From NCBI GenBank assembly GCA_022376925.1, contig JAIOJX010000025.1:185937801-186001800 (forward strand): a stretch of 64,000 bases of DNA. Reading direction: 5' to 3'. Each line of letters starts with the position of its first letter. Position 1 is the first letter of the stretch. The translations under genes were made by a program, and so were the position numbers. A model generated the notes under the pieces. It was not told the origin of the DNA and ran no database searches. It saw nothing but the letters and a program-made list of their open reading frames with translations. This DNA comes from Tragulus kanchil. Lineage: Eukaryota > Chordata > Mammalia > Artiodactyla > Tragulidae. Positions 1 through 64,000 of the stretch are shown here, piece by piece.

Positions 1-3000
1 GGGGAGAGCCGGGGCCCGCACCTCCCGCCCCAGCCCGTCTCTCCGGAAGCCGGGCCAGCCCCGTCGGGCCGCGCGCTGCCGTCCTGCAGGAGGCGGCGGC
101 CCTGGGGCCCCAGCCCGCAGCCTGCAGCGCGCCGGCCGCCTCACCCTGTCCCAGCCTCACCTCGGTCCTGGCGGGCCAGCAGGCCGAGCAGGTAGTTGCT
201 GGCCTGCTGCAGCAGGACGTTGTTGTCGCCCTCGTACGTGCTGTTGGGGTCGTTGTCGTCCCTGAGGTCGCCCAGGGGCACGTCCAGCAGCTGCAGGCCG
301 TGTGTTTACGGTCTGATTTCACCATGCGGGGTGGTTTTGGCGGGAATACCAGTGGGGCTGATGTGACTCCTGGGCTTCCTGGCCCAGCGGGGACCCCGAG
401 AAAGACCTTCAGGAGTGGCCCGGCGTGCTCCCACTCTTTAAGAAGGGAGACGTGGAGGGCCAGTCGGAACAGAGCGGGTGCGGGCGCCGAGGCGGTGGCT
501 ACTGGAAACGCCTCTGGCGGCGGCTGCTCAGGAGGAGAGCGGAGGAGGGACGGCCGGGAAGCCGGCCCAGCCCAGGCCTGACGCTCCCTGCGTCCGCTGA
601 CGCGGGCTGGGCCTGGGTGGACTGGGCTGCCGAGGCCGCCTCTCGGGGAGACCTGAGACCCGAGCCGGGCAGGGCCGCCGTCCACCAGGGACGGCACGCC
701 CAGCGCCCGCCGCCGGCCAGCAGGCCGCAGGAGTGCGCCCAGCACCCTCGAGGGAGGCGGCGAGGCCGTCGCCGTGAAGCTGCTGCTGTCGTCACAGGAC
801 GACACAGGGAGACGTCGGGGCGGACCCACCGGTGGACGGACGAGGGAGCAAAGCCCCGGGCCGCTGCAGGCCCGCGCTGGGCAGAGCAGCAGGCGGCTTC
901 CGGGGCCCGGGCCGGGCCGAGCGCGGTCACCTGAGGCGTCCTGCAGGTCCTCCGGGCTGCAGCCCTCGAGTCTCCGGCCCAGGATGTCCGGGTAGGCTTC
1001 CAGGAAGTCCACGGTCCTCAGGGGGCTCTGGATGCGGGCGCCACCTAGGAGCACAGCCGGCGCCTCAGGGGAGAGCCGGGGCCCGCACCTCCCGCCCCAG
1101 CCCGTCTCTCCGGAAGCCGGGCCAGCCCCGTCGGGCCGCGCGCTGCCGTCCTGCAGGAGGCGGCGGCCCTGGGGCCCCAGCCCGCAGCCTGCAGCGCGCC
1201 GGCCGCCTCACCCTGTCCCAGCCTCACCTCGGTCCTGGCGGGCCAGCAGGCCGAGCAGGTAGTTGCTGGCCTGCTGCAGCAGGACGTTGTTGTCGCCCTC
1301 GTACGTGCTGTTGGGGTCGTTGTCGTCCCTGAGGTCGCCCAGACGGTTGACTGCAAGGAGGCGCGGGCGTCACCGTCGCCGCGGGGGCTCGTGGGGCCGC
1401 GCCGCCACCCCCGCCATCACGGACGCCGGGGCCCAGGCCGGCCTGACGGCTCGAGGCACCACCCACCCTGCTTCAAGGCCAGCGCCCCCGCTCCCTCTCT
1501 CGGAGGCGATGGCGTCGCCGGTGAGGTCGTGGGCAGGGGGCCCGGCGTCGCGCTCAGGGAGCCCCAGGGCCCTCAGCCTCCTCGGCACCGTCGCGAGCCT
1601 CGCGGGACGCCCGGCGGAGCTCCCTCCGGAGGGGCCGCTGACCGTCGCCGGGCCCCGCCTCCGCTCACAGCTGGAGGACCCTGGCTCTCCACAGGACGTT
1701 CCGACGGCCCGCAGAAACGCCTGCTTTTCTCTTGTCTTTCCTACCAGCGAACTAACCCATTGCCGCTGCAGATTTTAAGAGGGGGCTGACCACGACCCTC
1801 CCGACCTGGGCCTCTGGCCTCTGGCACAGTAATAGAAGGAGAATTCTCCACAGGGCGGGCTGAGATGGAAGAAGGGGTAGGACGTGGACGCCGCACCCTC
1901 ACATTCCGCCGTGAGCAGCCCGAGAGGGTTGAGGACGTCCCGCAGCCGACACGGGGCAGTGGTCACCTGTGACACCCGCATCGTCTTCCCCCGACCTGCT
2001 GCCCACGCCCAGGCCGACCACTGGACACGGAGACTGGGGCGGCCTTAGGGAGGGGACTCGCAACTGCTTTCTTTAAGCCTGGATTAAGGGCTCTTGCTTT
2101 ATCCCCGCTGAGCCCGGCCTCACGGCTTCAGCCCCGCTCATCTTCCACGATGCCTGCTGCTGCGGTCACTTAGGCTGCCTGTGGGCTGCATGACTCGAGT
2201 TCCTCTCTCTACACTATTTACAGTGTCTCCACGGGCTGTACCAACAAACTAACGACAGGGAGCCCGGCACAGAGACAAACACACGACGAGGAACTCCGGC
2301 AGCACCGCGGCTCCCCGCCCGTCAGTAACGGAGAGAGTGGGGGCGCCGAGGGCCCCGCCTGCCGCTCCACGGAGAGTGCCCGGACGCGCCGGCGCGAAAG
2401 CACGCGGTTATCCGCGGACCGCCACCGCGATGCTCGAGAGCAGCAAGCGCCTAGAGGGCTCCTAGGAATACACTCTCGGGAAGGCCTCGGCCCCGCGGCC
2501 GTCGGCTGTCTGAGGAACCAGACTCCACCGGCCGGTGACCGCAGGTGGGCACCGGGACGTCAGGCAGGCAGGCCGTGGACAGTGACGACCAGAGTGGCGG
2601 CCGGCCTCCCTGGCGGCTCAGACAGGAGAGAACCTGTCCGCGCTGGAGGGACCCCGGGCTCAGGCCCTGGGGGGGAGATCCCCGGAGGAGGGGGCGGCGA
2701 CCCCTCCAGCGCTGGTGCCTGGAGACGCCCATGGCCGGAGGAGCCTGGCGGGCTGCAGCCACGGGGTCACAGAGAGCAGCTAACACTTTCCCCTTCATAA
2801 CAGCAACAGATCAGCGTCACTGGGCCCGCGCCACTGCCCGGCTCTGTGCTAGACCTTCAGGTGCGTTCGTCACTCACTCACCCCGTCGTCACCCCATCTC
2901 TGGAGAAGGACACCCGGGGCCGTGCGGGGGAGCCGTGCCCACGGCGCCGTGACCAGTGGCCAGCAGAGGCAGGATCCGGCCCCGGGCTGCCGGTCACCCC

Positions 3001-6000
3001 TCCGCCCTCCCGCCACCAGCTGCTTGCTCAACAGCCGCCAATGCCGATAAAAACAAACTCTAGGCTCCAGAGTTTCCTCGAGCAAAACGTGGTGCCAAGG
3101 CCCGGCCAGGCGTGAACCAAAGCGTCCGATTGCCCAGGCCGACCACTGGACACGGAGACTGGGGCGGCCTTAGGGAGGGGACTCGCAACTGCTTTCTTTA
3201 AGCCTGGATTAAGGGCTCTTGCTTTATCCCCGCTGAGCCCGGCCTCACGGCTTCAGCCCCGCTCATCTTCCACGATGCCTGCTGCTGCGGTCACTTAGGC
3301 TGCCTGTGGGCTGCATGACTCGAGTTCCTCTCTCTACACTATTTACAGTGTCTCCACGGGCTGTACCAACAAACTAACGACAGGGAGCCCGGCACAGAGA
3401 CAAACACACGACGAGGAACTCCGGCAGCACCGCGGCTCCCCGCCCGTCAGTAACGGAGAGAGTGGGGGCGCCGAGGGCCCCGCCTGCCGCTCCACGGAGA
3501 GTGCCCGGACGCGCCGGCGCGAAAGCACGCGGTTATCCGCGGACCGCCACCGCGATGCTCGAGAGCAGCAAGCGCCTAGAGGGCTCCTAGGAATACACTC
3601 TCGGGAAGGCCTCGGCCCCGCGGCCGTCGGCTGTCTGAGGAACCAGACTCCACCGGCCGGTGACCGCAGGTGGGCACCGGGACGTCAGGCAGGCAGGCCG
3701 TGGACAGTGACGACCAGAGTGGCGGCCGGCCTCCCTGGCGGCTCAGACAGGAGAGAACCTGTCCGCGCTGGAGGGACCCCGGGCTCAGGCCCTGGGGGGG
3801 AGATCCCCGGAGGAGGGGGCGGCGACCCCTCCAGCGCTGGTGCCTGGAGACGCCCATGGCCGGAGGAGCCTGGCGGGCTGCAGCCACGGGGTCACAGAGA
3901 GCAGCTAACACTTTCCCCTTCATAACAGCAACAGATCAGCGTCACTGGGCCCGCGCCACTGCCCGGCTCTGTGCTAGACCTTCAGGTGCGTTCGTCACTC
4001 ACTCACCCCGTCGTCACCCCATCTCTGGAGAAGGACACCCGGGGCCGTGCGGGGGAGCCGTGCCCACGGCGCCGTGACCAGTGGCCAGCAGAGGCAGGAT
4101 CCGGCCCCGGGCTGCCGGTCACCCCTCCGCCCTCCCGCCACCAGCTGCTTGCTCAACAGCCGCCAATGCCGATAAAAACAAACTCTAGGCTCCAGAGTTT
4201 TTCCTCGGAGCAAAACGTGGTGCCAAGGCCCGGCCAGGCGTGAACCAAAGCGTCCCGATTCAGAGGGTCAGAGCAGCTCGCTCCTGCTCTGCCTCCCGCT
4301 CACCACGCTGCCTCGTGACCCCAGACTGCAACCGAGGGGCACCGGGCGGCAGGGAGCCCAGGGCTCGGACGAGGGCAGGGGCTGGCAACTCCGCTCCGGA
4401 AAGTTCCAGGCGGTCACCGTTGTAGTGCAGGGGAGCGGGAACACGCCACAGGAAGCCCAAATGAATGGGCGCAACCGGGAGCCCATACTCTTACCCACAA
4501 CGCCAGCCCTCGCCTGCAGGCTGACCCCAGGCCGCGTGCTGACCCTGGCTGTGCATCACGCGGCGGCGATGAAGACAGAAAGCCAGCCCACGGGTCCCCC
4601 AAACCTACCGGCTAGGTAGCCGTGGCCTCCACACGCCTCGCGGCACTCCTGGATCCCCCGCTGGGCCGTCCACGAGGCCAGCGCCTTGCCGGCGGACGAC
4701 AAGGCGTGGATCTCGCGCCTCAGCTCCGCCTTGGGGGAGAGAAGCCAACCAGGTCAGGAGAAGAGGCTCTGCCCCGGAGGCCGGTGGACGGTTCAAGCTC
4801 AGCCTCAGGGGCTCGCGTCCTGGCCAGTGTGATCCCGGGGACAAACGCAGGAAATCCAGTGTTAGCTTAAAAAGCAGGATTCATCCAGCCTCACCGGCTC
4901 GGCAACTTCATGGCGCTGAAAGCAAATGACCACAGCAGCCCAGCCGGTAAAGCCCGTGGGAGGAGGCTGACGGCAGAAGGGCACGCACGTGGCTGAGTGT
5001 ACACGAGTGCACAGCGGGAACCAGGCGCGAATTCAAGCTGCAGCGCGTGGCCGACTGCCCGGCTCTGTGCTAGACCTTCAGGTGCGTTCGTCACTCACTC
5101 ACCCCGTCGTCACCCCATCTCTGGAGAAGGACACCCGGGGCCGTGCGGGGGAGCCGTGCCCACGGCGCCGTGACCAGTGGCCAGCAGAGGCAGGATCCGG
5201 CCCCGGGCTGCCGGTCACCCCTCCGCCCTCCCGCCACCAGCTGCTTGCTCAACAGCCGCCAATGCCGATAAAAACAAACTCTAGGCTCCAGAGTTTTTCC
5301 TCGGAGCAAAACGTGGTGCCAAGGCCCGGCCAGGCGTGAACCAAAGCGTCCCGATTCAGAGGGTCAGAGCAGCTCGCTCCTGCTCTGCCTCCCGCTCACC
5401 ACGCTGCCTCGTGACCCCAGACTGCAACCGAGGGGCACCGGGCGGCAGGGAGCCCAGGGCTCGGACGAGGGCAGGGGCTGGCAACTCCGCTCCGGAAAGT
5501 TCCAGGCGGTCACCGTTGTAGTGCAGGGGAGCGGGAACACGCCACAGGAAGCCCAAATGAATGGGCGCAACCGGGAGCCCATACTCTTTACCCACAACGC
5601 CAGCCCTCGCCTGCAGGCTGACCCCAGGCCGCGTGCTGACCCTGGCTGTGCATCACGCGGCGGCGATGAAGACAGAAAGCCAGCCCACGGGTCCCCCAAA
5701 CCTACCGGCTAGGTAGCCGTGGCCTCCACACGCCTCGCGGCACTCCTGGATCCCCCGCTGGGCCGTCCACGAGGCCAGCGCCTTGCCGGCGGACGACAAG
5801 GCGTGGATCTCGCGCCTCAGCTCCGCCTTGGGGGAGAGAAGCCAACCAGGTCAGGAGAAGAGGCTCTGCCCCGGAGGCCGGTGGACGGTTCAAGCTCAGC
5901 CTCAGGGGCTCGCGTCCTGGCCAGTGTGATCCCGGGGACAAACGCAGGAAATCCAGTGTTAGCTTAAAAAGCAGGATTCATCCAGCCTCTACCGGCTCGG

Positions 6001-9000
6001 CAACTTCATGGCGCTGAAAGCAAATGACCACAGCAGCCCAGCCGGTAAAGCCCGGTGGGGAGGGGAGGCTGACGGCAGAAGGGCACACGCACCGTGGCTG
6101 AGTGTACACGAAGTGCACAGCGGGAACCAGGCGACGACCATTCAAGCTGCAGTCGCTCGTGGGGAGACTAAGAAACCCAAGGGGTGCAGGCAGTGCGGAC
6201 ACGCGGCCCCCAGGGAGAGGGTGGGGCGGCCCCAGGGCTGCGGAGCCCTGGCCGTGCAGGCCGCTCTGCGCGAGGCCCCGCCCGTGTCCTTGGCCCTAAC
6301 TGATCTAATAAATATTCTTTTGCTTTGACTGGATATTTAATAACAACAATTACCAGAAAGACACCCCCACCCCCGCCTCTAAATAAGGTGCTTTACCAGC
6401 AGTTTCAACTACAAACAGCAGTTCCTTTGTGACCCGTGCCTGGGCTGAACCGCAGAGTGTCAGAAAGAGCAGGCCAGGGGGACGCACGAGAATGTAAGAG
6501 GACAATTGCACCGCCGGCCGGCAAGGCTTCCAGTGACTCACGTTTGGGGAGAAGAAACACACGGAGCCCGCCCTCCTGATGGAACGGTCCTCAGGGCCCT
6601 GTCGGCCAGGCTGCTCGGCCGTGCACCCTGCCGGCGCCCCCCACGCCCCGACGTCACCCGCCACCCAACTCCCGAGTGCCGAGGCTGAACACTCCAAAAC
6701 GTGCCAATCTGATACAGACTTCTCCGGGCACGGTGCCTAACTTCAATCTGCGCTGTTGCTGACGAGTTCTCAGACATGCTTGTGATCTGCCTCTCCCCTC
6801 CGCCCAGGAGGCCGCATGAAGCAGAAGAAACCAACACGCGAGCCGTCCACACGGAAACTAGCAGCAGGCGCTCTCCTTCCACAGGCGCTGACCTCAGAGG
6901 ACGTGCACGCTCGTGGCTGGCACGAAGCCTCGCCTGTCAGCTCAGATCCACTCAGCTGGGCGCAGACCTTTGTGGGCCTGTTTACCCAAGGATCAGAACC
7001 GTGAAATCTACGCAGGGGCCGGCGATGAGGATTTTGAAAAGCATCGTGTTCCCCAGAGAAGAGCAGCTGAACTCACAGATGGGAGCCAGGAGCCGCGTCA
7101 GCACCTCCCGGGGGCCGGGGAATGGGGACACGTGCCCGACACGCCCCACCGCCGCGAGGGCTCCGGGAGGACACGGCCCAGGGGTCACGTCGGACGAGCC
7201 TTCGTCCCAGCAGATCCCCACGCCCAGGCTGCTTTGAAAGAAAGGCTGTGTCTGCGCTTTTCAACACCAGTGAGATGGAAATGAGGATAAACACTGCAGA
7301 GAAACGCGGGGCCCTCACCTGCCCGAGGCTAGGGCCTTCCCCAGGAGAAAGTGGGGCCCTCACCTGCCCGACTCTAGGTCCTTCCCCAGGAGAAAGCGGG
7401 GGGCCTCACCTGCCCGAGGCTAGGTCCTTCCCCAGGAGAAAGCGGGGCCTCACCTGCCGGACGCTCTGGTCCTTCCCCAGGCGGCCCTGCTGAAGCTCCG
7501 CCATGTCCAGGGAGAGCGACTTGGAGAAGTGATCCAAAGCGTAGGCAGCAGCCAGGTACGGAAGCAAGCGCCATTGCTGAAACAGACAAACCGGCCTGAA
7601 CCCCCCACGCTCCCAGCAGGACCCCCCGCAGGAGGGCGAGCCCCACACCAGCGCACACGGTCCGGCTCGTCTCCGGGACCCGCCCCACGGCACCTGCCCC
7701 GACGCTCCGCCCCGCGCCCAGTGCGCCCCGCCACCCCGAGACCCCACGGGGAGAAACGTGCCCCGCGACCCCTGAGCCAGAGCATAGGGACATTCACGCA
7801 CATGGCCAGCCGGGCCCCACGCCCAAGCATGGGCCCCGGCGATGCCTGCCCTCAGTGACTATGAGGAGTGAAGCGATGGTCCCGAGCCAACGGGGACACC
7901 GGCTCCCGGAGGCCTGTCCGCTCCACGGCACCTGCCCGCTGCCGCGAGGACGGGGCGGGGGGCCAAAGGGACCTGGGACAGCCACCGTGCCGCCCGCACC
8001 GCCGTGGGCTCCGACTCCTGGTGGCGTCACTGTGCCCACCGCCCCTCCCCCTGACGAGCCAACCCCACCGCCGCCCGAGGGGAACCTCACCACTCCCGCT
8101 CACCGGGGAGAGGACCAGAGCACAGAGAGGTTCAGCAACCTGCCCACGGGCACACAGCAGGGCGGGGTGGACCGGGGGGTCAGGAGCCCAGCCCAGGGCT
8201 CCGGGGGCTCTTGTGACCGAGGACTCAATAGCATGGCGGCCACCGAGTGCCAGCCAGGCACGAACCAGGCACTAGGCTTTTCCTTATCTGGTATCAAACC
8301 AGAGTCACGGTCGTATCAAAGGAACATTAAACAGATTCGATCCAGTTACAATTTCCTGAAACTTTCATTCAAATACGCCTTTGCTCATGTGTCGCTTGGC
8401 CCAAGACCTGGGGCTGGGGTAGCGGCGGCCTCCGGGGCCCGGCCTGGAGCCTGGGGACCACCCCCAGCCACCTGCTGCGCGGGGCAGCGTCGCGTGGGCG
8501 TGGAAGGGCGGGCGACGCAGAGGCACTGGCGGGGGCTCCCCGTGGTGAAAGGCCACCCCCGCCCTGGCCCGGCGCCCACGGGTGCTCGGCGTGGCCGCAC
8601 CTCTGCCGTCCAGGGCTGCCCCCTCTCTGAGGACCTGCAGGGCGAGTGCCCCTGCTGAAGGACGCCCGGTGAGCGGCGCTGGACCCTCCGCTGTGGCTCT
8701 GGGGGGGAGCCGGCGTGCTGGGGCGCGGCCCGCACGCTCGGGGCCGTGGGAGGGGTGAGCCTGCGGGCCGGCCCCCTCGGCCTCAGCCGGCGCCTCCTCA
8801 GGCCCCAGACGCCGATCCGTCCTCCCCCGGCGCTGACGCCCGTCCCTCGGCTCACCGCGAGGACGCCCGGTCAGCTCCCAGGGACTGCCGCCACGGCCTA
8901 AGAGAGGCGCTTCCCGCGAACAGAAGGACGACGGGCTCCCGCCTGCGGACGCGCACCTGCGTCGGGTACTCCAGCACCGGGACCTCCTCCCCGTCGGTGG

Positions 9001-12000
9001 GCCCGAACTGGCGCCGGGTGGCTGAGAAACGCAGCGCGATGGACACGGCCAGCTTCAGGTTCACGACAGACATGCCCACGATGGCGACCCGGCCGGAGGA
9101 CAGGCTGCCCAGGGACTCGCTGAACCGCTGCCCGGCGTCCTGCGGGAGGAAGCCGGTGAGGGCGGGCCCGGGACCCGCGGCCACCTCGGGACGGGCAGGG
9201 GCGCCCCGGACACAGGCCCGGGGAACCAGGCGGGCTGAGTGCAGGGGGCCGTGTCCCCACCACGGGACGGTGCGGGGAGGGACAGGCCACACGAGCGCGG
9301 GGCCCCGGGCACACACGCCGTCAGTGGGGCCCGACAGGCTGCCACACAGAGGGGCAGAGCCCTGCTCTCGGCCTCGCTGAGGACCAGACGGGCCGTGCGG
9401 AGAGCGAGGAGGGCCGAGGCAGAGAAGAGCGGCGCCAGCATCTCCCCTTTCCCGTCCAGCCACCACCGTACGGGCCGTGACGGGCACTGGGGCGGTCATC
9501 CGCTGGTCCCCGTGCTCTTCCGTTGTGCTGTTCAGTTGCTCAGTTGTGTCCAATTGTTCGCGGCCCCACGGCCGGCAGCACGCCAGGCTCCCGTCCCTCA
9601 CCCTCTCCTGGAGGTCGTTCAAGCTCCTGTCTGTTCAGTCGGGGACGCCATCCAGCCACCCCCTCCTCTGTGCCCCTCTCCCCCTGCCCGGGTCCTCCCC
9701 AGCAGCAGGGCTTAAAGCGAGGTAACGGCCTGGGCGCGTCCGGTTTCAATCGGTCGTAAACGCCAGCGTGCTCGTCTCACGGCTCCCGCAGCGGCTCGCT
9801 CGAAGGCCCGCCGGCAGCGCCTGGGCACGCTGACCCGTCCGTCTCACCACGTTATCCGACCCCACGTGCCTCCTCACTCCCAGCGGCTTCTCCTGGTTCA
9901 CATATTTTGCTACGCAGGCTTTTCTCCTAACGCCGCGTCCACTCTGGTGTGTGCGGCAACCTGCCGAGACCCGGGCCGTGGACGTGCACAATGTCCTCAC
10001 GCACACATGCCGGCTTGGCTGCATGGAGGACAAGCATGGCCACAGCGGCTCTCCGTCCGCAGTTGGAAACGTCGTCTCCCTGACCGCTTTTGGTCAGCAC
10101 CTGGCCGGGGACACCCGAGGCGAGGGGGCTGGTACCCCGGGAGCCGCTCTGCACCCCTCCCTGGGAGGGCCCGGGCCTCCTCTGGCTGGTTTGGATGTTT
10201 CTCAGCAGCGGCCTGGGTGACAGCCCCTGACCACCCGGTCAGGCTCCCCGGTCAGGGTCTGCCTCCTTCCGTAACTGAGGGACGTCGGTGCTGGCGGTTT
10301 CTGCAGACCGTCTGGGGATCGCCCCTTCCTGCCTGCGCCCGCCTCCCTCTGACCTCCACTCGCCAGCCCGCTGCGGCGACACCTCCCCTGCGTCTCTCAT
10401 TTACGTTCACACCGTCGTTTTTATGCCAGTTTCCTTTTCTGAACGGCCTCCGGTGTCATCTCCAGCCTCTCTCCTTCTCGGAAGGTCCTCGTCACGCTCG
10501 CTGAAGCCCTGCTCTTGAGAGCTCCGCGCAGCCCGTGCGTGGCGTCGGGCGGCACTCTCCGGCGCGCCTGTGACCCCGGACGCAGCGCCCGGCTGTGGCC
10601 CAGGACCAAGGCCCTCCGCTGCCCTGAACTGGCCATGTCTGGAGCCAGGGCCGTGCCACGGCGTGTCTACCCTCAACGAACCTGGGGGCGCCGTGGGCCC
10701 CAGACGCCAGAAGCCACGGTCACCCCGCCAGTGCTCGGCCCGCCGGACGACCCTGGCCTCTTCTCTCTGTGCGAAGCAGCTGGCGGGGGCGGCCTTCCGC
10801 ACTGTGACCGGGGGCCGGCGGGGGCGGAGGGAGGGCCGTCATCGTGCTGGGGGCCCCGGGGACGCGGCTGACCAGAGCGCCCTCGTCCGTGTTGGAGGCG
10901 CCGGGACCCGCGCCTGGGGGGCTCCCGCGGCGCCGCTGCTCCCCCAGCAGACCCCCCGCCTGCAGGCCCCGCTACCTCCACGCGGGGGACGTAGGCGCCC
11001 TCCGGGGTGACGTCTCCCACGCGGCTCAGCAGGCCCTCTCGAGGAATCCTGACCTTGTGGAACACGGCGAAGCTGTGCGGGGAGACGGGCTCCTGGTTAA
11101 GCCGGGCGGCCCCGGGCTCCCCTCGTCTCCCTCCCGGACCCAGTCAGACTCGAGCAGAGGCCAGCTCGAGCGGAGGCGTGAGCCCCGGAGACCGGCGAAC
11201 CCCGGAGAGCAGCCCCAGGAGGGAGGACACGCGGAGACGGCCCCTCTCCACAGAGCCGTCTGTCCAGACGCGGAGCCCAGGGACCGAGGCCCGGGGCCAG
11301 CAGAACCTAAGCTGCGCGGGGCACCCCCCGGCGGGACCCCTGCCCGCCGCCCCACCGCGCCAGCCCCTCGCGGCCCGCGGCAGCTCGCGCCCGCGGTGAC
11401 CTCCAGACCTCGGGCCGGCGGCCCTCTGAGCACGGCCACCTCCTCCGAGAGGCCCGCCACGACTCCCCAGCCTCTCGGGGTGAACACCTGGTGGCCCCAC
11501 ACTCGACCGCGGTCCTGTTCACGTCACTCCCTGAGCCGCCGGCTTCCCGGTGGCACTGGTCACCCAGTTACGAGGGGGCCACACGCCTGGGACCCAGCAG
11601 ACAATCAGGGCCGTGGATGAACCAGCCAGGGACGGGACGCCACCCTCCGGGAGCGGGTGCCGTCTCCACGGACGCCCCCGTCGGCGCACCTGGCGAGGGA
11701 AGAGCTGAGGCCCGGGGCTGCGGGGCAGGGGGGCCCTCCTGATTCCTTCAGAACCAGCTAGAACTCAGCCCGTGAGGCCGCACGGGCCTCGCCAGCTTCG
11801 GGCGAGGGGTCTCCCTCCCTCGTACAAATCACGGACCGGCCTGAGCGCCTGAAGGCGCTGCCTGGAGGCGGCCGTGCGCCGGGCCTCTGTGGGGCTGAGA
11901 CCCTCGTGTCCTGAAGATGCCCGTGCGGACGCCCCCGGTGTGGTCCCGATGGTTACTGGAAAGCCAAGGAATGCACTTCCAAGTCTGCGGCTACAATCCC

Positions 12001-37691: not shown

Positions 37692-38412
37692 GAGCAGCCC
37701 CCTCTACGCTCTTCCAGGGGCCTTTTCCTGCATAAGTCCCTGGGATTCTGTCCCCTCCCTGGTTCGAGGACACTGCTGGGCCTGCGTTTGACCAGGCACG
37801 TGCCTGGGACATCTCTAGGTGGAACTGAGTGGACCTGGAGACTTTTGGGGTCGTGAGGAGGCGGGGAGAGAGGACGGGCTCACACTTCTTGGGACTGTTT
37901 TGCAGGAACCTGCGTGGGGAGAGACGCCGCGGGGACCGACATGGAGACGCTACTTGGGGCAAAAGAAAGGAAGCTCGGTTTTGCACGTGTTTCGTTAGCT
38001 GCTTCCTGGGAAAGCTGCCAGGGATGGATGGTGTGGGCAGGGTGCGAACTCTTCGGGCAGCTCTGCCGACCGCGGCCTGCTGTGCCTCTGCCGGGACTCT
38101 GGCCAGTCCCACCCCCGGCCCCACCCAGGTCTGGATCGTTTTGACCTCTGCTCTGATACCCATCCCCTGCGCAGCCTGGGTCCTTAGCTCTGTTCGTGGT
38201 TGCTGGGTACTGCCACTGTCTGAACACGCTGGGAACCCTAGTCTCCTCCCAACTCCGCAGCCACTTGTCTTTTTATCCCCTTCCTCCCTTCCTTCCCGCC
38301 ACCCCACTTCCCTCCCGGTTCAGGACCCACAGAAGAGGCGTTGGGAAGGAGTCAGCAGGTCACTGGCTTGGGATGGGCTTCATGAGGACTTGGTGCCAAG
38401 GATGGTCCTGTC

Positions 38413-39003: not shown

Positions 39004-39462
39004 TCAAGGAATTTTTTTTCAAACTGTAAACCCAAAACATTCGATTCAGAATTTACAGACTGAAGGAAGCCTGGCCTCAGGGGAGTGTCTGGCTGAGGAC
39101 CTGGAAAGTGGGGGGAGGAGGGCTGCTGGAGTGACCCGAAGCCACGTTGAGAGGACACGGCTGGCCCTCCGGATACTCCGAGACGGCCTTCCCGCCGGAG
39201 CCTCAGCTGCCGTCTCCCCCGAGCTCTGCCCAGCTGCCAGCACCGGGATGACGAGGACCCAGCCCGGGGGGCCTTTGGGTGTCCCGCTTGGGCCTCTCGA
39301 GAGCTGCACTGTCCAATCCAGTGGCCACTAGCCCTGTGTGGCTATCTTAATTCAAATGTACATAGCTAGAATAAAGTCAACATCGCATTCAGCTCCACGG
39401 GCGCCATCAGCGACATCTGAAGACACGGGGGCTACTGTCCTGGACAACACGGACAGACGCCT

Positions 39463-44300: not shown

Positions 44301-44356
44301 TGCAGCACAGTGCCCGCGGCAAAAAGCCAAGTCTGCACTAAACACACTGCTCTTGG

Positions 44357-49800: not shown

Positions 49801-52800
49801 AGCCTGGGGGTCCCCGAGGAGCTGCTGAGACTCTCTCGGGCAGCTCAGGTCTGTGGAAGGTGTGAAGTCTGGTCCGCTTCCATTTGGCGATTTTAAATGG
49901 GGAAGTCAGAGGAAAGGGAGACCCCGTGTTTCTCTTCCGCTGTCTCCCGCCGGCCTCGTGGCTCTGTTCCTCCGCCGCAGGCTCGGACCCTGTCTGTTTA
50001 ACCGCAGGGCGCTGTGCCCCTGGTTTCGTGCAGGGCCACAGTGGGCAGAGCTCGGGTGTGGCGTCGTGTAGGCCTGGGTCACCTGTGACCTTGGGAGGGT
50101 CACCGCTCCGCCTCCCTCGTCTCGCCTCTGACACAAGTGGAATCATGTTTGAACCCTGGGGACGGGGCTGGGCTGGGCTTCCCGGGGAGCTGCTGGGGGT
50201 CAGACGCTGGGTGGGCTCCTCAGGGTCTGCCCCAGTGTGTGTTTTGGTTCCCTGAGGGCCCTTTGCGGGGAGGGTGGGCGGACCCCAGGGAAGGCCGTGA
50301 GGGCCCCTGGGGCTCCCCCATTGGGTGCCGATGCCGCAGCTGTGGGGTGAGCCCTGGAGCCGCTGTCCGCTGGCCTGGGTGGGGACACCCGGCCCGGGCC
50401 TGGCCGCGGCAGGCGGGGCTCAGAGGGGCTGCCGTGGTGGGTGCACTGCCCGTCCTCCCCGGGCTCTGAGCACTCGGCTGGCTGCCCCCATCCTTCCCGG
50501 CCGACGTTCCCTGTGGTTGCCCACTGGGCACTGGGCACTGGGGCTGGATGTGTGCCTTCTCGGCAGAGCACCCGTCTGTGGGCGTCGGGTGGCCGCCATG
50601 CGTGGCGTGCGGCTCCTGGTCGGCACTGGTTTCAGCAGGATTCGCGGTCTGCCCGCCGTGGGGTCACACTGGCACCGGGCTCCGCAGGGCCCACGGTGAC
50701 AGGTGCTGCCGTGCGCGTGGGTGGAGCAGGGAGAGGTGCCCCGGGCCTCTGCTTGGTGACCGAGTGTCAGCTTTCCAGCTGGGAAATACCTGGTGAGCCA
50801 GCAATGTGCCTCCGGGTGGCACGTGTGAAAAGTGTAAAACCTAGAAAAGTTAGAGAAGTCCGTGCCGTTGCAGACGCTGGCTGCCTGGTGCGCGCGGGAG
50901 GGGAGAGGAGCCGTGCGGCCGTGCGGCTCGCTCCTCTTTCCGACGGTCCTCGTGAGCTGCGTAAATGCATTTTTAACAACATTTGCAAGAGAGGAGGAAT
51001 TGTCTCTGCTTTTGAAATGTGTTGTTCTCCACAGGACGAAAATGCTGTAACTAGTTCCAGATTGTTTTGGGTACAGCATTTGCTCATCGTAGCTACCTTA
51101 GCTCCTATCTTCTTTGAGTAAATAAATGTATAGTTTAAAAATAAGAACCGACACCAGCTCCACTTATTCATATTTCTCGGGTGGGGGGGGCGTCGTGTAG
51201 GCCTGGGTCACCTGTGACCTTGGGAGGGTCACCGCTCCGCCTCCCTCGCCTCGCCTCTGACACAAGTGGAATCATGTTTGAACCCTGGGACGGGCTGGGC
51301 TGGGCTTCCCGGGGAGCTGCTGGGGGTCAGACGCTGGGTGGGCTCCTCAGGGTCTGCCCCAGTGTGTGTTTTGGTTCCCTGAGGGCCCTTTGCGGGGAGG
51401 GTGGGCGGACCCCAGGGAAGGCCGTGAGGGCCCCTGGGGCTCCCCCATTGGGTGCCGATGCCGCAGCTGTGGGGTGAGCCCTGGAGCCGCTGTCCGCTGG
51501 CCTGGGTGGGGACACCCGGCCCGGGCCTGGCCGCGGCAGGCGGGGCTCAGAGGGGCTGCCGTGGTGGGTGCACTGCCCGTCCTCCCCGGGCTCTGAGCAC
51601 TCGGCTGGCTGCCCCCATCCTTCCCGGCCGACGTTCCCTGTGGTTGCCCACTGGGCACTGGGCACTGGGGCTGGATGTGTGCCTTCTCGGCAGAGCACCC
51701 GTCTGTGGGCGTCGGGTGGCCGCCATGCGTGGCGTGCGGCTCCTGGTCGGCACTGGTTTCAGCAGGATTCGCGGTCTGCCCGCCGTGGGGTCACACTGGC
51801 ACCGGGCTCCGCAGGGCCCACGGTGACAGGTGCTGCCGTGCGCGTGGGTGGAGCAGGGAGAGGTGCCCCGGGCCTCTGCTTGGTGACCGAGTGTCAGCTT
51901 TCCAGCTGGGAAATACCTGGTGAGCCAGCAATGTGCCTCCGGGTGGCACGTGTGAAAAGTGTAAAACCTAGAAAAGTTAGAGAAGTCCGTGCCGTTGCAG
52001 ACGCTGGCTGCCTGGTGCGCGCGGGAGGGGAGAGGAGCCGTGCGGCCGTGCGGCTCGCTCCTCTTTCCGACGGTCCTCGTGAGCTGCGTAAATGCATTTT
52101 TAACAACATTTGCAAGAGAGGAGGAATTGTCTCTGCTTTTGAAATGTGTTGTTCTCCACAGGACGAAAATGCTGTAACTAGTTCCAGATTGTTTTGGGTA
52201 CAGCATTTGCTCATCGTAGCTACCTTAGCTCCTATCTTCTTTGAGTAAATAAATGTATAGTTTAAAAATAAGAACCGACACCAGCTCCACTTATTCATAT
52301 TTCTCTTATTTTCAAAGGTTCATATCTGTTTTAATTTTCTGTCCAGAAAGATGGCATTCAGATGGCATTGTGTATCCCAAACCCACCTGGCTTGGAGGGG
52401 AGCTGCTGGCCAGGTTGGCCAGGTGGTGCGTGGGGAGCGGGCAGAGCGGCTTCAAAAGCACCCTGTCCCTCATTTCCGTCCTGAAGTACAGCAGGGCTTA
52501 CCAGAGGCTCAAAGAGAAGTATAAGGACCTGGTCAAGGTAATTCTGGGGAAGGACGTCTTGGGCCCCACCCCCTGTGAGCAAGGTGACGCCCTGGACTGC
52601 TGCGGCTAGCTCTGTTCCCGTGTGCCTTGTCCTTCCATGCAGCCGCAGACGTTAGGTCAAAACAGACCCACCTGAGGCCCCCCTGCAACCTGTAGCTGGG
52701 GGTGGTGAGGGGGGCAGACCATGAAACACTGGCGTTTATTAAGTTATGGAAAAGAGGGGTTTTAAAAAAATTTTTTCTTGGCATGTTCCTAGTTTTTTTT

Positions 52801-55800
52801 TTCCCAAGAGAACAAAAAGGATGTATTTTTAATTTAAAATAATTGAATGTTAAATTAATTGCTAATTTGCCGTAATCCTTTAGTATAAATAAAAATACAT
52901 TTGGAGAAAATATATGAAATGTTCTTTACTTTATATCTAAGAAGTATAAAAAAAGGTAACAACAAGCATCTGTGGGCTTCCCCTGGTGGTCCAGTGGGTA
53001 AGGACACCGCCTTGCAGTGCAAGGGGCGCCGGTTCCATCCCTGGCCTGGGAAGATCCCACGTGCCGCGGAGCGGCTGGACTGATGTGTCCAATCACCGAG
53101 CCGGAGCTCTGGAGCGCATGCGCCCAGAGCCGGCGCTCTGCAACGACAGACGCCACCGCGATGGGAGGCCCACAGGAGCCAAAGAACAAAGATGGATGAA
53201 AATAGACAAATGAAAGACCAATAGAAGCGGCCCGCCCGCTCCCCTCCCTCCCCAACCCGACCCCCGCCCAAAATAAATAAATAAATAAATAAATCTTTAA
53301 AAAAAAAACAACAAGCATCTGTGACATCACACCCAGCTTAAAAAGGGAAGTGTCCCAGAGCACATCGCGATGCACTGTGCCCCGCAGCTGCTGTCGCTGT
53401 CGCACACTAAAGCTTCACGACGGCCTCGCGTGGCCAGTCTCCGGGCACCGCTCTCCACCCGCGTCTGCTCAGGTCACGTCCCTGGGCTCCTTTCTGGTCA
53501 CGGCACAGTGTTTCAGACGTGTTCGCTCTCCGTGCGCTCGGCACGATGATCTCTGAAATGACTGCCGTGACTCCACTGGTGGTTGGCGTCTCTCAGGAGT
53601 GACGTTTTAGCGGCGGGGGCTGCGCCCCGCAGCCTGTGGGCCTCGGTTCCCCGACCAGGGATCGAGCCCGCCCCTCGGTGGTGAAAGCCCCCAGAGTCCA
53701 GCCGCTGGAGTGCCAGGAAGTCCCCAGGACAGGGTCTCTTTTCAGTCGAGTCTTTGTAATTAAAGAGCCTATGTTGTTTTTACAGACCTAATGCTGTTGC
53801 ACACTTAATAGACTAGCGTAGTCTCAGCGTGACTCTCATACGCAGTTGGAAACCAGAAACTCCGTGTGGCCGCTTCACCGCAGGGCTTGCTGGGTCGGGG
53901 TGTCTGGCGCCGAGCAGCCCGTGTGGCAGCCCGTCACCGGCAGCCCACAGGGTGGAGCTCTGACCCCACCCCTCAATTCCGTGTTCAGCAGACTCAGTCT
54001 GGGGGGCGGGAAGGAGGCGCAGCGGAGCGTCTTGCTCCGGGGTTGAGTGGCCTCGTCTGGGTGTCCTGCAGATGAGATCCATATCCTGAAGGCTCGCTCT
54101 GGGCTCTGGTGCTCGCTGCAGGCCCTGAGACGCGCTGACGCGGTGGAGATTTACCTGTGCTCTTGAAAACTAGGTGTGGCCTGAAGTGACCGACCCCGAG
54201 AAGTTCGTGTTTGAAGACGTGGCTATCGCTGCCTACCTGCTGGTGAGACCCGAGCCCGGGCGGGCGGTGGGGCGGGGCTCCCAGCGGGGCTCAGGTCTCG
54301 ACGGCTCTCTTGGCCAAGGCTGGTCCCGCGGAAGACGTCTTCTTAACCTCTGCCTGTGCTTGTGCAGGAGTGTGGAGCAGGTTTGGGTTGTGAAACTCAG
54401 CCCCAGGAGCTCCGTGTTCTCCTAGTCACTAGTCGACAAGGCGCACTTAGGCACGCCCTTCACCTCAGTGGTCTTGGTGGTCTTACCTGTGAAGTGTCTA
54501 GAGGAGGCAATCTCCAGATGCCTTCCGGCTGTAGTTCCCTTAGTCTTAGAAGTAACAGTGCTTCTCACAGGACACAGCGCCTGAAGAACTTAGCGAGCCC
54601 CCGAGGCACGAGCGGTCGTCTGGAAAGCTCTGGCCAGAGCTGACCACGGGAGTGTGGGCTCTGGATGCGAGAGGAGACCTGGGGCCCGCGCAGCCTCGGG
54701 CGGGAGCAGCAGGCGGCGCCCACCTCCCGTGGCTCACCGGGCATCGGCAGGGCCCCAGAGGCCTCTCCACGGGCTCTGGGAGAAGACCGTGGTCCCACGC
54801 GGGGCTGGGCCTGAATGGCTCTCGCGTAGAGTGACTCACAGTGTGGCTTTGTTTTTCACGTGTCTTAGATTCTGTGGGAAGAAGAGAGCCGAGCGGGGAG
54901 AGACCGCCAAGCAGTCCTTTGTGGACCTCGGCTGCGGGAACGGCCTGCTGGTCCACATCCTGAGCAGTGAGGGGGTAAGGCAGCCGCCGGGGGCCGCTGC
55001 TAGAGCGTCGGCAAGCCCAGCACCAGGGCGTCCTCTGCTGACGTGACCTGGGTAGAGGGCGGGCTGCCGGGCGCTCGGCTAAGCCGCGAACCCCGCGGGC
55101 CTGGGAGCAGCCCGTGTGGCAGCCCGTCACCGGCAGCCCACAGGGTGGAGCTCTGACCCCACCCCTCAATTCCGTGTTCAGCAGACTCAGTCTGGGGGGC
55201 GGGAAGGAGGCGCAGCGGAGCGTCTTGCTCCGGGGTTGAGTGGCCTCGTCTGGGTGTCCTGCAGATGAGATCCATATCCTGAAGGCTCGCTCTGGGCTCT
55301 GGTGCTCGCTGCAGGCCCTGAGACGCGCTGACGCGGTGGAGATTTACCTGTGCTCTTGAAAACTAGGTGTGGCCTGAAGTGACCGACCCCGAGAAGTTCG
55401 TGTTTGAAGACGTGGCTATCGCTGCCTACCTGCTGGTGAGACCCGAGCCCGGGCGGGCGGTGGGGCGGGGCTCCCAGCGGGGCTCAGGTCTCGACGGCTC
55501 TCTTGGCCAAGGCTGGTCCCGCGGAAGACGTCTTCTTAACCTCTGCCTGTGCTTGTGCAGGAGTGTGGAGCAGGTTTGGGTTGTGAAACTCAGCCCCAGG
55601 AGCTCCGTGTTCTCCTAGTCACTAGTCGACAAGGCGCACTTAGGCACGCCCTTCACCTCAGTGGTCTTGGTGGTCTTACCTGTGAAGTGTCTAGAGGAGG
55701 CAATCTCCAGATGCCTTCCGGCTGTAGTTCCCTTAGTCTTAGAAGTAACAGTGCTTCTCACAGGACACAGCGCCTGAAGAACTTAGCGAGCCCCCGAGGC

Positions 55801-58800
55801 ACGAGCGGTCGTCTGGAAAGCTCTGGCCAGAGCTGACCACGGGAGTGTGGGCTCTGGATGCGAGAGGAGACCTGGGGCCCGCGCAGCCTCGGGCGGGAGC
55901 AGCAGGCGGCGCCCACCTCCCGTGGCTCACCGGGCATCGGCAGGGCCCCAGAGGCCTCTCCACGGGCTCTGGGAGAAGACCGTGGTCCCACGCGGGGCTG
56001 GGCCTGAATGGCTCTCGCGTAGAGTGACTCACAGTGTGGCTTTGTTTTTCACGTGTCTTAGATTCTGTGGGAAGAAGAGAGAGCCGAGCGGGGAGAGACC
56101 GCCAAGCAGTCCTTTGTGGACCTCGGCTGCGGGAACGGCCTGCTGGTCCACATCCTGAGCAGTGAGGGGGTAAGGCAGCCGCCGGGGGCCGCTGCTAGAG
56201 CGTCGGCAAGCCCAGCACCAGGGCGTCCTCTGCTGACGTGACCTGGGTAGAGGGGCGGCCGGGCTGCCGGCGCTGGGGCTGGCGGTGACGCCGCAGAGCA
56301 GGCCGCTTGTCCACGGGGAGGTGGGGCCGCGATCCTGCGAGGCCGGGAAGGGCTCCAGGGGCAGGCGGCCTGGGAGTTGTGCCTCTCAGCAGCACGCGTG
56401 TTCTCATTGGTGTTTTCTTTGGGCGGTGCGCCATTTCAGGGCGTGGGAAGGGGTGGAGGTAAGGCGCACTGTGCCGTGGAGAAGCGACTGGCAGGCACCT
56501 GCATACTGTGTGCGTGTGTGCACCTGGGGCGCTCAGTTTTGTGACCATCTTCTTGGTTATGACGCAGAGGCCTGAGAACCAGGAACAGGCCTGGCCCGGG
56601 AGCAGCTGAGGCGCAGCGGCGACAGTGCCCGGCTCCCGGGACCCCGCGTCCTGCCTGTGGACAGACCCCGTGTGTCCTCACCTGCGGGCCTTTGGAGCGG
56701 CTTGTTAGGCACTTTGGGGCTGTTTATAAAAGAATGAATCCGTGACCCTTTGAACAGCTTGTCTGTGGGTGTTAGCATGTCAGGCGGGGGCTGGGGCTGG
56801 GGCGGGCCCAGGAGAGCCGCGTGGGGTCAGGGCGTGTTGGGCGGGAAGGGCCCGAGAGGAGGCCTGGCCGGGGCCGGCGGAGCCGTGAGCGCACGGGAGT
56901 GTGGGGGCGCGGCCCCCTCCCAGGGAGGTGTGCTCCTGGGGCTCGTGTGACCCCGGGGGGTCCCCGGGCCTCGTGAAGGCTTGGCCGCTCCGGCTCTGTC
57001 TGTGCCTGGGCCGAGCGTCTGTTCTCCGCAGCCCTGGCGCTGCGGGCCCCCGCCCTTCACTCGGGTGATGCCTGGCAGGCTTGGTTTGTTCGCGCTCTCG
57101 CACAGTGACGTGCTGGCCTCAGCCTTCCATTCCTCAATTCTTCCTTTCAGCATCCGGGCAGAGGGATTGACGTCCGAAGAAGAAAAATCTGGGACATGTA
57201 TGGACCCCAGACCCGCCTGGAGGTACTGGCCCTGTGCCTTCACTTGACCCCAGCAGGGTGTCCCCGGGGCAGCTGTTCTCAGGAGAGGGGTCTCTGTGCG
57301 GCCAGTCAGGCGCTCGTGACCAGAGCAACCCACACTAGGCTCTCCGCTCTGCAGCTTAAATGGAGGGTGTCCCCTAGGGCTTCCCAAGGCTCGGGCCACA
57401 CGGAAGGAAGAAGGCTGGCCTCCGGCGTGCAGGTGCTGTCTCGGCCCCAGGTCAGCCGCAGGTGCTTGGCGCCTCCTGGGGAGCTCACGGCTGCCGTGGG
57501 GGCGTCTCCTGCGGGGCCTGCCGCGGGCTGCAGCTGCGATAGTCGCTTGGCAGCGGGCACCCTCCCTGCAGGAACGAGCTCCCAGGGGCACCGCTCGCTC
57601 CTGTGGGGCTGAGGCTAGAATCGGCTGGCGCCTGTGCCCTCAGTGGTTTGGGCCGGGCACAGATGTCTTCACGCCTGGCCCAGCCGCTGCCTCTTTCAGG
57701 GGAAGACCCACGGCCCAGGGGCCGAGAGTGGCCCAGAGCAGCTGTGCTTCTGCAGGATGCTGCGTCTTTGTCCGCACGATGCGCGGCGTTCACGGACTAG
57801 ACGTTCAGTCTTGCTCTGCATCTTTCTTCTAGGAAAGTGCAATCACACCGAGTGATGAGACCCTTTTCCCTGACGTCGACTGGCTCATCGGTAACCATTC
57901 CGACGAACTGACACCCTGGATACCTGTCATTGCGGCCAGGTGAGCCGGTGGGCGTGCTGGCACCAGGGTGGCTGGGGAGGGTCTCTTGCCTCAGTCGCGG
58001 CATCCGCACCCATAGCTGCTTCTGTCCGGTCCTGCTCTCCGCTGGTGCTCTCCAGTGCTGACGTGTTTTTCCCGGGAGGCTGTCTCATGGCGGGAGGCCG
58101 TGCCTGGCGGTGTGGAGATGCTCTGCGCAGGGGCTGGTCTCCTGGTTCTGGGCGCTCTGCCGCGCTCGGCGTCCAGCCTGCTCCTCGCCGCGCTGCCCTT
58201 CTGCCACTCGCCACCGGGCGCTCCCACCCGGGACCCAGGACCCAGGATGGGCTGTGCCATCTGTTTACTTCTGATGCCCTCCTCCCCCTTTTCTCAGGCA
58301 CAGGTGATTTACGGTGATGGTTTCAGGTGTACAACACAGTGATTAGAATTGTTATAGATTATACCCTGCAGTCGTCATAAAGTATTCCTCGTGTCCCCGT
58401 GTGGCCGTAGCTTGTTGATTTCCTGCGTCGTGGCTTGTGTCTCTTCACCCCCCACCCCCGCTCCCTCCCCCTGGGGGACCGCCACCTCATCCTCTGTACC
58501 TGTGAGTCGGCTTCTTTTTGGTTATTTTCATTCGTTTTATTTCTTAGATTCAGCCTACACCTGAGAGCACACAGCGTTTGTCTTTCTCTGTCTGACTGTA
58601 TTTCACAGAACATGATACTTCCAGGTCCGTTCTTCCGGACTTCCTCTGAGAGCAGCAGAGGTCAGGGAGCAGACCGTGCCCTTTAGGTGCCCACCTCTGA
58701 GATCCCTGTCCACAGCTGAGGCCCCCAGGTGCATCCGAAGGGTTTGGTTACAGTCGGCCCAACGGCAATGGAAAAAACAGTTGTTATAAAAGCCGTTACT

Positions 58801-62210: not shown

Positions 62211-64000
62211 GCAGGCGCTGTGGAGCTGCCGGGGAGCAGGCGCTCGCCCTCTTGAGTTCAGGGAGGAGACGGAGGCCCCGCCTGCAGCCTGTCAGGGTGC
62301 TGCCCCCTGGCCTGAGGTTGGGCCAGACCAGGGGGTGAGCAGTGGCCCCACTCCCGGCATGGAAGGAGCCAGGCTGCATTTCGTTCTTCACCCCCGCAGC
62401 CTTCCCGTTCTTCGTCCCCTCCAGGGAGCCCAGCCCCGTGAGCCTCGGGGTCAGGAGGGCCTCTTGGGGACCCTGCTCAGGCAGCTGGCCATGCGTGTGA
62501 CTGTGAACAAGGCCTGGGGAGTTTCGGGGGTCAGCACCGCTTCCTGGGGCTTCGCTTGTGGCTCAGCTGGTGAAGAATCCACCTGCAGCGCGAAGACCTG
62601 GGTCCCGTCCCTGGCTGGGGACGATCCTCCGGAGAAGGGGCCGGCTCCCCGCTCCAGCGTTCTCGCCTGCAGGACATCAGGGCTCGTCCGGGTTGCAGAG
62701 AGTCAGACACCACGGAGGGACTTTCGCCTCTCACCCCTTCCTCGGGGTGCCCGCAGAGGGGCCAGGGTGGAGAGGGAGGCCGCCGAGGCCCGGAGTCCCC
62801 AGCCCTGCAGGCCGGCTGACAGTCAGGACTCTGAGCTTTAGCCGCAGCCCGGCCCGGCCCTCTGAGGGCTCCTTGTGTGGGCCTGCGCCCAGGAGGCGCC
62901 AGCCTCCGCCTGGGGCGGGCGGCCCCGTCAGTGCCTGGAGGGGGCCTCCAGCGGGGCTCACGCGAGGTGGCCGTGGCTCTGGGGTGAGGCCTCGGGGCTG
63001 CCCCCGCCCACCCTGGGGTGGGCCTCCGAGGGTCAGGCTGCTCTGAGGCGCTCTGGCTGCCTTCCAGGGGTGAGGAATCCACCTGGTGTCGGGGGTCGGG
63101 GGCACCCTGAGCCCGCGGCAGTTTCCCGCCTCTGTCATGGGACGCAGTGACCCCCGCCCCGGGCCCCCGTGTGTCTGAGCCCTGAGGAACGCATGAGCAG
63201 GTCTGTCCCTGGGACCTTGCTGAGCCAGGCCTGGGCTCTGCACTCTGCAGGCGCTGTGGAGCTGCCGGGGAGCAGGCGCTCGCCCTCTTGAGTTCAGGGA
63301 GGAGACGGAGGCCCCGCCTGCAGCCTGTCAGGGTGCTGCCCCCTGGCCTGAGGTTGGGCCAGACCAGGGGGTGAGCAGTGGCCCCACTCCCGGCATGGAA
63401 GGAGCCAGGCTGCATTTCGTTCTTCACCCCCGCAGCCTTCCCGTTCTTCGTCCCCTCCAGGGAGCCCAGCCCCGTGAGCCTCGGGGTCAGGAGGGCCTCT
63501 TGGGGACCCTGCTCAGGCAGCTGGCCATGCGTGTGACTGTGAACAAGGCCTGGGGAGTTTCGGGGGTCAGCACCGCTTCCTGGGGCTTCGCTTGTGGCTC
63601 AGCTGGTGAAGAATCCACCTGCAGCGCGAAGACCTGGGTCCCGTCCCTGGCTGGGGACGATCCTCCGGAGAAGGGGCCGGCTCCCCGCTCCAGCGTTCGC
63701 CTGCAGGACATCAGGGCTCGTCCGGGTTGCAGAGAGTCAGACACCACGGAGGGACTTTCGCCTCTCACCCCTTCCTCGGGGTGCCCGCAGAGGGGCCAGG
63801 GTGGAGAGGGAGGCCGCCGAGGCCCGGAGTCCCCAGCCCTGCAGGCCGGCTGACAGTCAGGACTCTGAGCTTTAGCCGCAGCCCGGCCCGGCCCTCTGAG
63901 GGCTCCTTGTGTGGGCCTGCGCCCAGGAGGCGCCAGCCTCCGCCTGGGGCGGGCGGCCCCGTCAGTGCCTGGAGGGGGCCTCCAGCGGGGCTCACGCGAG
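62211..64000 (+). repeat. Direct duplication 13 (offset 1,036, then 1,034), right copy cut by window end
   Basis: 62,211-63,246 is repeated from 63,247 to beyond 64,000. The second copy lacks two bases at GTTCGCCTG (GTTCTCGCCTG in the first). Intronic. Confidence 0.95.
62548..62722 (+). repeat. Bov-tA SINE (also at 63,584-63,756)
   Basis: GGCTTCGCTTGTGGCTCAGC, GGTGAAGAATCCACCTGCAG, GACCTGGGTCCCGTCCCTGG and GAGAGTCAGACACCACGG. The second occurrence is through duplication 13. Confidence 0.85.

What the first reader, a model, noticed from the sequence alone, without database searches (positions are those of the whole stretch)
1..64000. Thirteen direct near-identical duplications, all about 1.1 kb apart: unmerged contig overlaps
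Offsets are 1,067, 1,125, 1,096, 1,102, 1,121, 1,110, 1,132, 1,089, 1,076, 1,139, 1,129, 1,193 and 1,036 bases, with junctions near 276-300, 3,131, 5,053, 13,047, 15,158, 23,661, 37,027, 40,551, 42,527, 49,010, 51,188, 55,104 and 63,246. The duplicated sequence is different each time and ignores exons, SINEs and GC content. Where a piece is short, neighbouring duplications overlap and the shared part is present three times (3,958, 14,038, 41,452). Real tandem duplications would not share one length at unrelated sites. Overlap of consecutive contigs by a near-fixed length, pasted without trimming, explains all of it. About 13 kb is redundant.
Basis: partly seen in the sequence, partly recalled or inferred. 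Interest (0 to 1): 0.88.

Follow-up and report, generated by a model that had tools for sequence, protein, structure and literature searches.

The report
Untrimmed overlaps in a ruminant assembly
Thirteen stretches of this mammalian genome sequence appear twice in a row, almost certainly because overlapping pieces were pasted end to end without trimming during assembly; it is an error, not biology, but it creates false duplicate exons in two genes.

Summary
All 13 direct near-identical duplications are present, with offsets of 1,036-1,193 bp (mean 1,109, SD 39) and junctions within about 6 bases of those given. About 13.3 kb of the window is redundant. There are four triple-copy stretches, not three.

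The artefact reading is strongly supported. Disagreements crowd at piece ends. Length differences within 250 bp of an end are losses in the copy at its own piece end in 17 of 17 cases (strict count, edge zones left out). In the triple stretches a terminal copy is the odd one in 17 of 18 differing columns.

Protein evidence agrees. ACOX3 and TRMT44 exons inside overlaps occur twice here; only 1 of 240 homologous proteins examined shows any of its gene's three tested exons twice. Both exons that differ between copies are frameshifted in the terminal copy and intact in the other.

The near-fixed length and absence of Ns suggest a consensus-joining failure. My best guess is neighbouring layout units sharing one about 1,024-bp node, as in a wtdbg-type assembler with deletion-biased long reads (inferred, about 0.5). 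No reads, no second assembly and no own-genome search were available. The species is probably a ruminant, not close to the pecorans compared. Interest is low.

The parts
1..1342 (.). Overlap P0/P1, offset 1067: copy 1 ends at 275 (begins before the window), copy 2 is 276-1342; doubles an ACOX3 exon (1220-1357 and, cut short, 153-275, - strand)
   Evidence: 1-275 = 1068-1342 at 100%
2007..4260 (.). Overlap P1/P2: 2007-3131 and 3132-4260, offset 1125
3132..5053 (.). Short piece P2, wholly covered by its two neighbours; 3958-4260 present three times
3958..6152 (.). Overlap P2/P3: 3958-5053 and 5054-6152, offset 1096; doubles an ACOX3 exon (4610-4732 and 5707-5829, - strand)
11946..14151 (.). Overlap P3/P4: 11946-13047 and 13048-14151, offset 1102
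13048..15158 (.). Short piece P4, wholly covered by its neighbours; 14038-14151 present three times
14038..16284 (.). Overlap P4/P5: 14038-15158 and 15159-16284, offset 1121, no difference
22547..24768 (.). Overlap P5/P6: 22547-23657 and 23658-24768, offset 1111; two substitutions at CpG sites
35896..38148 (.). Overlap P6/P7: 35896-37027 and 37028-38148, offset 1132
39455..41638 (.). Overlap P7/P8: 39455-40544 (or 40551) and 40545-41638, offset 1090
40545..42527 (.). Short piece P8, wholly covered by its neighbours; 41452-41638 present three times
41452..43595 (.). Overlap P8/P9: 41452-42527 and 42528-43595, offset 1076
47875..50151 (.). Overlap P9/P10: 47875-49012 and 49013-50151, offset 1138; doubles a TRMT44 exon, frameshifted in copy 1 (48476-48591), intact in copy 2 (49612-49728)
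49013..51182 (.).
50054..52305 (.). Overlap P10/P11: 50054-51182 and 51183-52305, offset 1129
53912..56277 (.). Overlap P11/P12: 53912-55104 and 55105-56277, offset 1193; doubles two TRMT44 exons (starting 54174 and 55367; about 54869-54974 frameshifted and 56062-56169 intact)
62211..64000 (.). Overlap P12/P13: 62211-63246 and from 63247 on (runs off the window), offset 1036

Best explanation
An assembly artefact. The window is a chain of 14 consensus pieces, each overlapping the next by about 1.1 kb, concatenated without trimming the shared stretch (supported by internal evidence). The near-constant length, the absence of Ns and the deletion-type errors at piece ends suggest that the pieces are neighbouring layout units of a long-read assembler that share one graph node of fixed length. 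The node would be about 1,024 raw bases, which becomes about 1.04-1.19 kb of consensus when reads lose bases, and the unit-joining step failed or was skipped (inferred; a wtdbg-type assembler is my best guess, about 0.5). The four triple regions arise where two successive shared nodes themselves overlap by about 100-300 bp. The confidence below is for untrimmed overlaps of consecutive pieces, whichever program step made them.
For: (1) 13 tandem pairs with one length, 1,109 +/- 39 bp, at different sequences, with no N.
(2) 54 disagreement events in the 11 complete overlaps; 42 of 54 lie in the outer 10% at either side.
(3) Within 250 bp of an end, leaving out the last 47 bp of copy 1 and first 9 bp of copy 2, 17 of 17 length differences are losses in the copy that is at its own piece end. 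With the edge zones the count was 28 of 28 after 9 events of extra bases in the last 47 bp of copy 1 were set aside as ragged tails; counting those as contrary gives 28 of 37.
(4) 26 of those 28 losses are in homopolymer runs (23) or dinucleotide repeats (3).
(5) In the four triple regions a terminal copy is the odd one in 17 of 18 differing columns.
(6) Exons of ACOX3 and TRMT44 are doubled here and single in nearly all homologous proteins in which they were detected. Both exons that differ between copies are broken in the terminal copy and intact in the other.
(7) Terminal losses are shared equally by odd and even pieces, 14 and 14, so there is no sign of two kinds of piece.
(8) A benchmarking paper's introduction says wtdbg2 decomposes reads into 1024-bp segments merged into vertices (passage); all 13 overlaps are 1.01-1.17 times 1024.
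Against: No reads, coverage or second assembly of the same species could be examined; the own-genome search did not complete. The wtdbg link rests on one number and on options recalled from memory. wtdbg normally joins its units (recalled), so a failure must be assumed, and mean overlaps 8% above 1024 need strongly deletion-biased reads. Eight disagreement events lie more than 250 bp from either end, and at 50,120 the middle copy is the odd one; these may be heterozygous sites or consensus errors. Nine events in the last 47 bp of copy 1 are extra, not missing, bases in the terminal copy. Overlap P4/P5 has no difference at all.
Confidence: 0.96

Rival explanations
1. Long-read gap filling or patching (a different way to the same untrimmed overlaps): fill sequences about 1.1 kb longer on each side than the gap were pasted between contigs without trimming, so contigs and patches alternate.
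For: Every fill would give two flank-length duplications. The four short, wholly redundant pieces all have even numbers in the chain (P2, P4, P8, P10; coordinates), as alternation would predict.
Against: Terminal losses fall equally on odd and even pieces, 14 and 14, where a polished contig and a raw patch might be expected to differ. No N remains in the window. Even pieces of 13.4 and 8.1 kb would be long fills. Four fills would have bridged contigs that already overlapped.
Confidence: 0.2
2. Finished contigs placed side by side by a scaffolder or reference-guided step that joins with no gap and does not merge overlaps (duplicated overlapping contigs; also a different way to untrimmed overlaps).
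For: Same end-error pattern. A described class of error.
Against: Scaffolders normally insert Ns (general knowledge) and none is present. Contig overlaps that escaped merging would be expected to vary in length rather than cluster at 1,109 +/- 39. Contigs of 2-13 kb with 1.1 kb of near-perfect overlap would be expected to have been merged.
Confidence: 0.25
3. Real tandem duplications, or heterozygous haplotypes placed in series.
For: Substitutions at CpG sites (22,725, 22,777, 40,542) and the single-base difference at 50,120 look like allelic variation.
Against: One length at 13 different sites. 45 of 54 differences are gaps rather than substitutions, and they crowd at the ends. Losses lie in the terminal copy, 17 of 17 in the strict count. 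Nested triples. Doubled, out-of-order exons in two conserved genes.
Confidence: 0.01

Closest known systems
Duplicated overlapping contigs (DOCs), Kelley and Salzberg 2010 (PMC2864568; passages read)
   Same: Nearby pieces overlap at their ends and both copies are kept, giving a false duplication; exons can be affected.
   Different: There the cause studied is divergent haplotypes of a diploid, and gaps between placed contigs are part of the setting. Here the copies are nearly identical, the length is nearly fixed and there is no gap.
Homotype false duplications, Ko et al. 2022 (PMC9516828; passages read)
   Same: Duplication linked to sequence errors rather than heterozygosity; more erroneous k-mers reported in false duplications; false exon gains described.
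   Different: That class is defined by read depth and k-mers, which could not be tested here; [quoted passage not shown]
wtdbg2 (Redbean) layout units sharing a 1024-bp vertex (passage in PMC7730629; the wtdbg2 paper itself is not held)
   Same: A fixed segment length near 1 kb matches the overlaps. An option limiting overlap of adjacent nodes to 256 bp (recalled; one search listed no paper naming it) would match the 98-303 bp overlaps in the triple regions.
   Different: In normal use the units are joined by alignment (recalled); a failure or omission of that step is assumed. The assembler of this genome is unknown.

Membership tests
Duplicated overlapping contigs (false duplication) | End-to-end overlap of adjacent pieces with both copies retained | tested here: met
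   13 of 13 pairs
Duplicated overlapping contigs (false duplication) | Mate pairs or reads more consistent after merging | not testable with these tools
   no reads available
[quoted passage not shown]
   no reads available
Homotype false duplication | Differences are sequence errors, not haplotype variants | tested here: met
   45 of 54 events are gaps; 17 of 17 strict-zone length differences lie in the terminal copy; a few substitutions may be alleles
Homotype false duplication | Assembly gap between the copies (described as most often present, not always) | tested here: not met
   no N in 64,000 bases
Unjoined wtdbg-type layout units | Overlap length equals one node, about 1024 raw bases | tested here: inconclusive
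   1,036-1,193 bp, 1.01-1.17 times 1024; the read deletion bias needed is assumed
Unjoined wtdbg-type layout units | Adjacent nodes overlap by at most 256 raw bases (recalled) | tested here: inconclusive
   98-303 bp in the four triple regions, up to 1.18 times 256
Unjoined wtdbg-type layout units | Genome assembled with that program | not testable with these tools
   species and record unnamed; own-genome search unanswered (and earlier)
True tandem duplication | Differences spread evenly along the copies and mainly substitutions | tested here: not met
   42 of 54 events in the outer tenths; 45 of 54 are gaps
True tandem duplication | Both copies on single molecules | not testable with these tools
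   no reads available

The most novel reading that the evidence does not exclude
The about 1.1-kb overlap is a genome-wide fingerprint of a consensus unit-joining failure in this animal's assembly. The whole assembly would then be inflated, by as much as a fifth where it is as dense as here, with many falsely doubled and frameshifted exons. The overlap-length peak plus losses confined to the terminal copy could serve as a reference-free detector of this fault in other assemblies.
Probability: 0.5. Interest if true: 0.3.

Novelty: not a real feature. Interest (0 to 1): 0.12.

Why it matters
It has no biological meaning, but it matters for users of the assembly: gene models of ACOX3 and TRMT44 here would gain false exons and frameshifts, copy-number and tandem-duplication scans would report false events, and about 21% of this window is redundant (13,342 of 64,000 bp). 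The signature (near-fixed overlap length, no Ns, losses in the terminal copy) is easy to scan for in other assemblies.

Tried and rejected
Real tandem duplications and serial haplotypes were rejected on difference pattern, length constancy and exon order. An alternation of contigs and patches was tested by parity of terminal losses and not supported (14 against 14), though not excluded. Dependence on local GC was tested and not found.

Species: the identity table is mixed. The window is 87.4-89.1% identical to six pecorans, its nearest rows, but hippopotamus is closer to them (91.9-94.3%) than the window is, and a FastTree tree of the 249 columns grouped the window with peccary (support 0.933). 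The ruminant reading rests on SINE-like peptides recognised from memory and on ruminants leading the ACOX3 hit list. My earlier guess of a chevrotain is only a guess.

A search of IMG/VR for the TRMT44 methyltransferase exon found no relative by tblastn (279 pattern matches, none confirmed). Paper searches on wtdbg-type assemblies, duplications and contig ends and on ruminant or chevrotain wtdbg assemblies showed no paper whose listing describes this fault; listings show titles and the start of abstracts only.

In the first majority vote I cut the middle copy of the first triple region four bases too long, which made four spurious columns; one search repeats it with the right cut. The 28 of 28 includes 11 events in edge zones where the alignment is doubtful; one search gives the strict count.
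Full report
What is there. Self-comparison of the 64,000-base window (no N; GC 63%) shows 13 direct tandem pairs, at 98.8-100% identity over the 11 that lie wholly inside. Offsets run from 1,036 to 1,193 bp, mean 1,109, SD 39. The second copy begins directly after the first, apart from 4-26 unmatched bases at the end of copy 1 at five junctions. The window is therefore a chain of 14 pieces (P0-P13), each sharing about 1.1 kb with the next. Four pieces (P2, P4, P8, P10; 1.9-2.2 kb) are wholly covered by their neighbours, which themselves overlap by 303, 114, 187 and 98 bp; those stretches occur three times. The redundant sequence in the window is 13,342 bp. A more sensitive plus-strand scan found no further near-identical pair at offsets of 30-3,500 bp.

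Errors mark the piece ends. Alignment of the 11 complete overlaps gives 54 disagreement events, 45 gaps and 9 substitutions; 42 of 54 lie in the outer tenth on either side. Within 250 bp of an end, but leaving out the last 47 bp of copy 1 and the first 9 bp of copy 2 where alignment is doubtful, 17 of 17 length differences are losses in the copy that is at its own piece end. With those edge zones the count is 28 of 28 (18 at ends of copy 1, 10 at starts of copy 2), after setting aside 9 events of extra bases in the last 47 bp of copy 1 (ragged tails), 9 events without length change and 8 events further than 250 bp from an end. Counted harshly, with the ragged tails as contrary cases, it is 28 of 37. 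Of the 28 losses, 21 are of one base and 7 of two; 23 are in homopolymer runs, 3 in dinucleotide repeats and 2 in neither. The two partial overlaps show one two-base difference in 1,031 bp. In the four triple regions the interior copy can be compared with both terminal copies: a terminal copy is the odd one in 17 of 18 differing columns, the exception being a C/T difference at 50,120.

Genes as an independent check. Homology searches (best 120 of 1113 listed, best 120 of 295 listed) identify TRMT44 (tRNA uracil-O(2)-methyltransferase; Pfam PF07757 on one exon) on the + strand and ACOX3 (peroxisomal acyl-CoA oxidase 3) on the - strand. Among tblastn matches kept by strand, identity and score, their exons run in order along the window except at overlaps, where they are doubled. 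The ACOX3 exon for residues 393-433 is at 5,707-5,829 and 4,610-4,732. The ACOX3 exon for residues 432-477 is at 1,220-1,357 and, cut short, at 153-275. TRMT44 exon 218-256 is at 49,612-49,728 and, frameshifted by one lost base, at 48,476-48,591. TRMT44 exon 330-352 starts at 54,174 and 55,367. The methyltransferase motif exon 353-388 is intact at 56,062-56,169 and frameshifted by two lost bases in copy 1 (about 54,869-54,974). In both coding disagreements the broken exon belongs to the piece that ends there.

In the homologous proteins these exons are single where detected. For the three TRMT44 exons (218-256, 353-388, 330-352) over 120 proteins: single in 95, 120 and 119, not detected in 25, 0 and 1. 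For the three ACOX3 exons (393-433, 432-477, 475-512) over 120 proteins: single in 113, 108 and 109, double in 0, 1 and 0, not detected in 7, 11 and 11. The one doubled case is a tree-shrew ACOX3 model (P0187), plausibly an annotation or assembly error of its own, which was not followed up. These proteins come from other species, some from unnamed sources, so this is not an independent assembly of the same animal.

How it most likely arose. Concatenation of consecutive overlapping pieces without trimming is the only reading I found that fits all of the above. Three further facts narrow the step. No N separates any pair, so a gap-inserting scaffolder is unlikely. The overlap has a near-fixed length, so it was probably set by a parameter. 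Terminal losses fall equally on odd and even pieces, 14 and 14, so there is no sign of two kinds of piece. A consensus step that works unit by unit, with neighbouring units sharing one fixed-length node, gives all three. A benchmarking paper says in its introduction that wtdbg2 decomposes reads into 1024-bp segments merged into vertices (passage in PMC7730629); the overlaps are 1.01-1.17 times that, as expected if reads lose bases. The 98-303 bp overlaps of next-but-one pieces resemble an allowed node overlap of 256 bp in that program (recalled; one search listed no paper naming the option). This step is inferred, at about 0.5. The alternatives are untrimmed long-read gap fills and zero-gap scaffolding of overlapping contigs.

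Where it comes from. In 249 TRMT44 exon columns the window is 87.4-89.1% identical to six pecorans, which are 94.7-98.8% identical to each other, so it is no close relative of the sheep, banteng, buffalo, musk deer and deer compared. Against a simple placement, hippopotamus is 91.9-94.3% identical to the pecorans but only 87.4% to the window, and a small tree put the window with peccary (all). Ruminants lead the ACOX3 hit list, and SINE-like peptides typical of ruminants occur (recognised from memory). A divergent ruminant, perhaps a chevrotain, is a guess.

Relation to the known. False duplications from overlapping contigs are a described class: duplicated overlapping contigs in PMC2864568 (passages) and homotype false duplications in PMC9516828 (passages). 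What differs here is the near-fixed length, the absence of gaps and the density (13 in 64 kb). Read depth, a defining test in the latter paper, could not be run.

Verdict. It is an artefact, not biology.

Noticed in passing
window 46368-61714 (+) and 153-30160 (-): TRMT44 (+ strand) and ACOX3 (- strand) lie divergently, their first recognised exons about 16 kb apart in window coordinates; many exons are recognisable from other artiodactyl proteins.
   Followed up: partly
window, TRMT44 exons 49612-59212: The host's TRMT44 is 83-89% identical to all 12 mammals compared, and further from pecorans than hippopotamus is, so it sits on a long branch of unclear place.
   Followed up: partly
window 50120 (copies at 48981 and 51249): C/T difference where the interior copy, not a terminal one, is the odd one; together with CpG differences at 22725 and 22777 this may be heterozygosity.
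   Followed up: no
P0187 (Tupaia chinensis ACOX3 protein, residues 377-455): The exon for residues 432-477 of ACOX3 is present twice in tandem in this tree-shrew gene model, possibly another false duplication.
   Followed up: no
window 7299-7481: Imperfect tandem repeat of about 91 bp period (88%), running into the region of an ACOX3 exon match at 7391-7579.
   Followed up: no
window 33090-33424 and 52974-53310: Pair of 88% identical dispersed repeats about 20 kb apart, probably a transposable element family.
   Followed up: no
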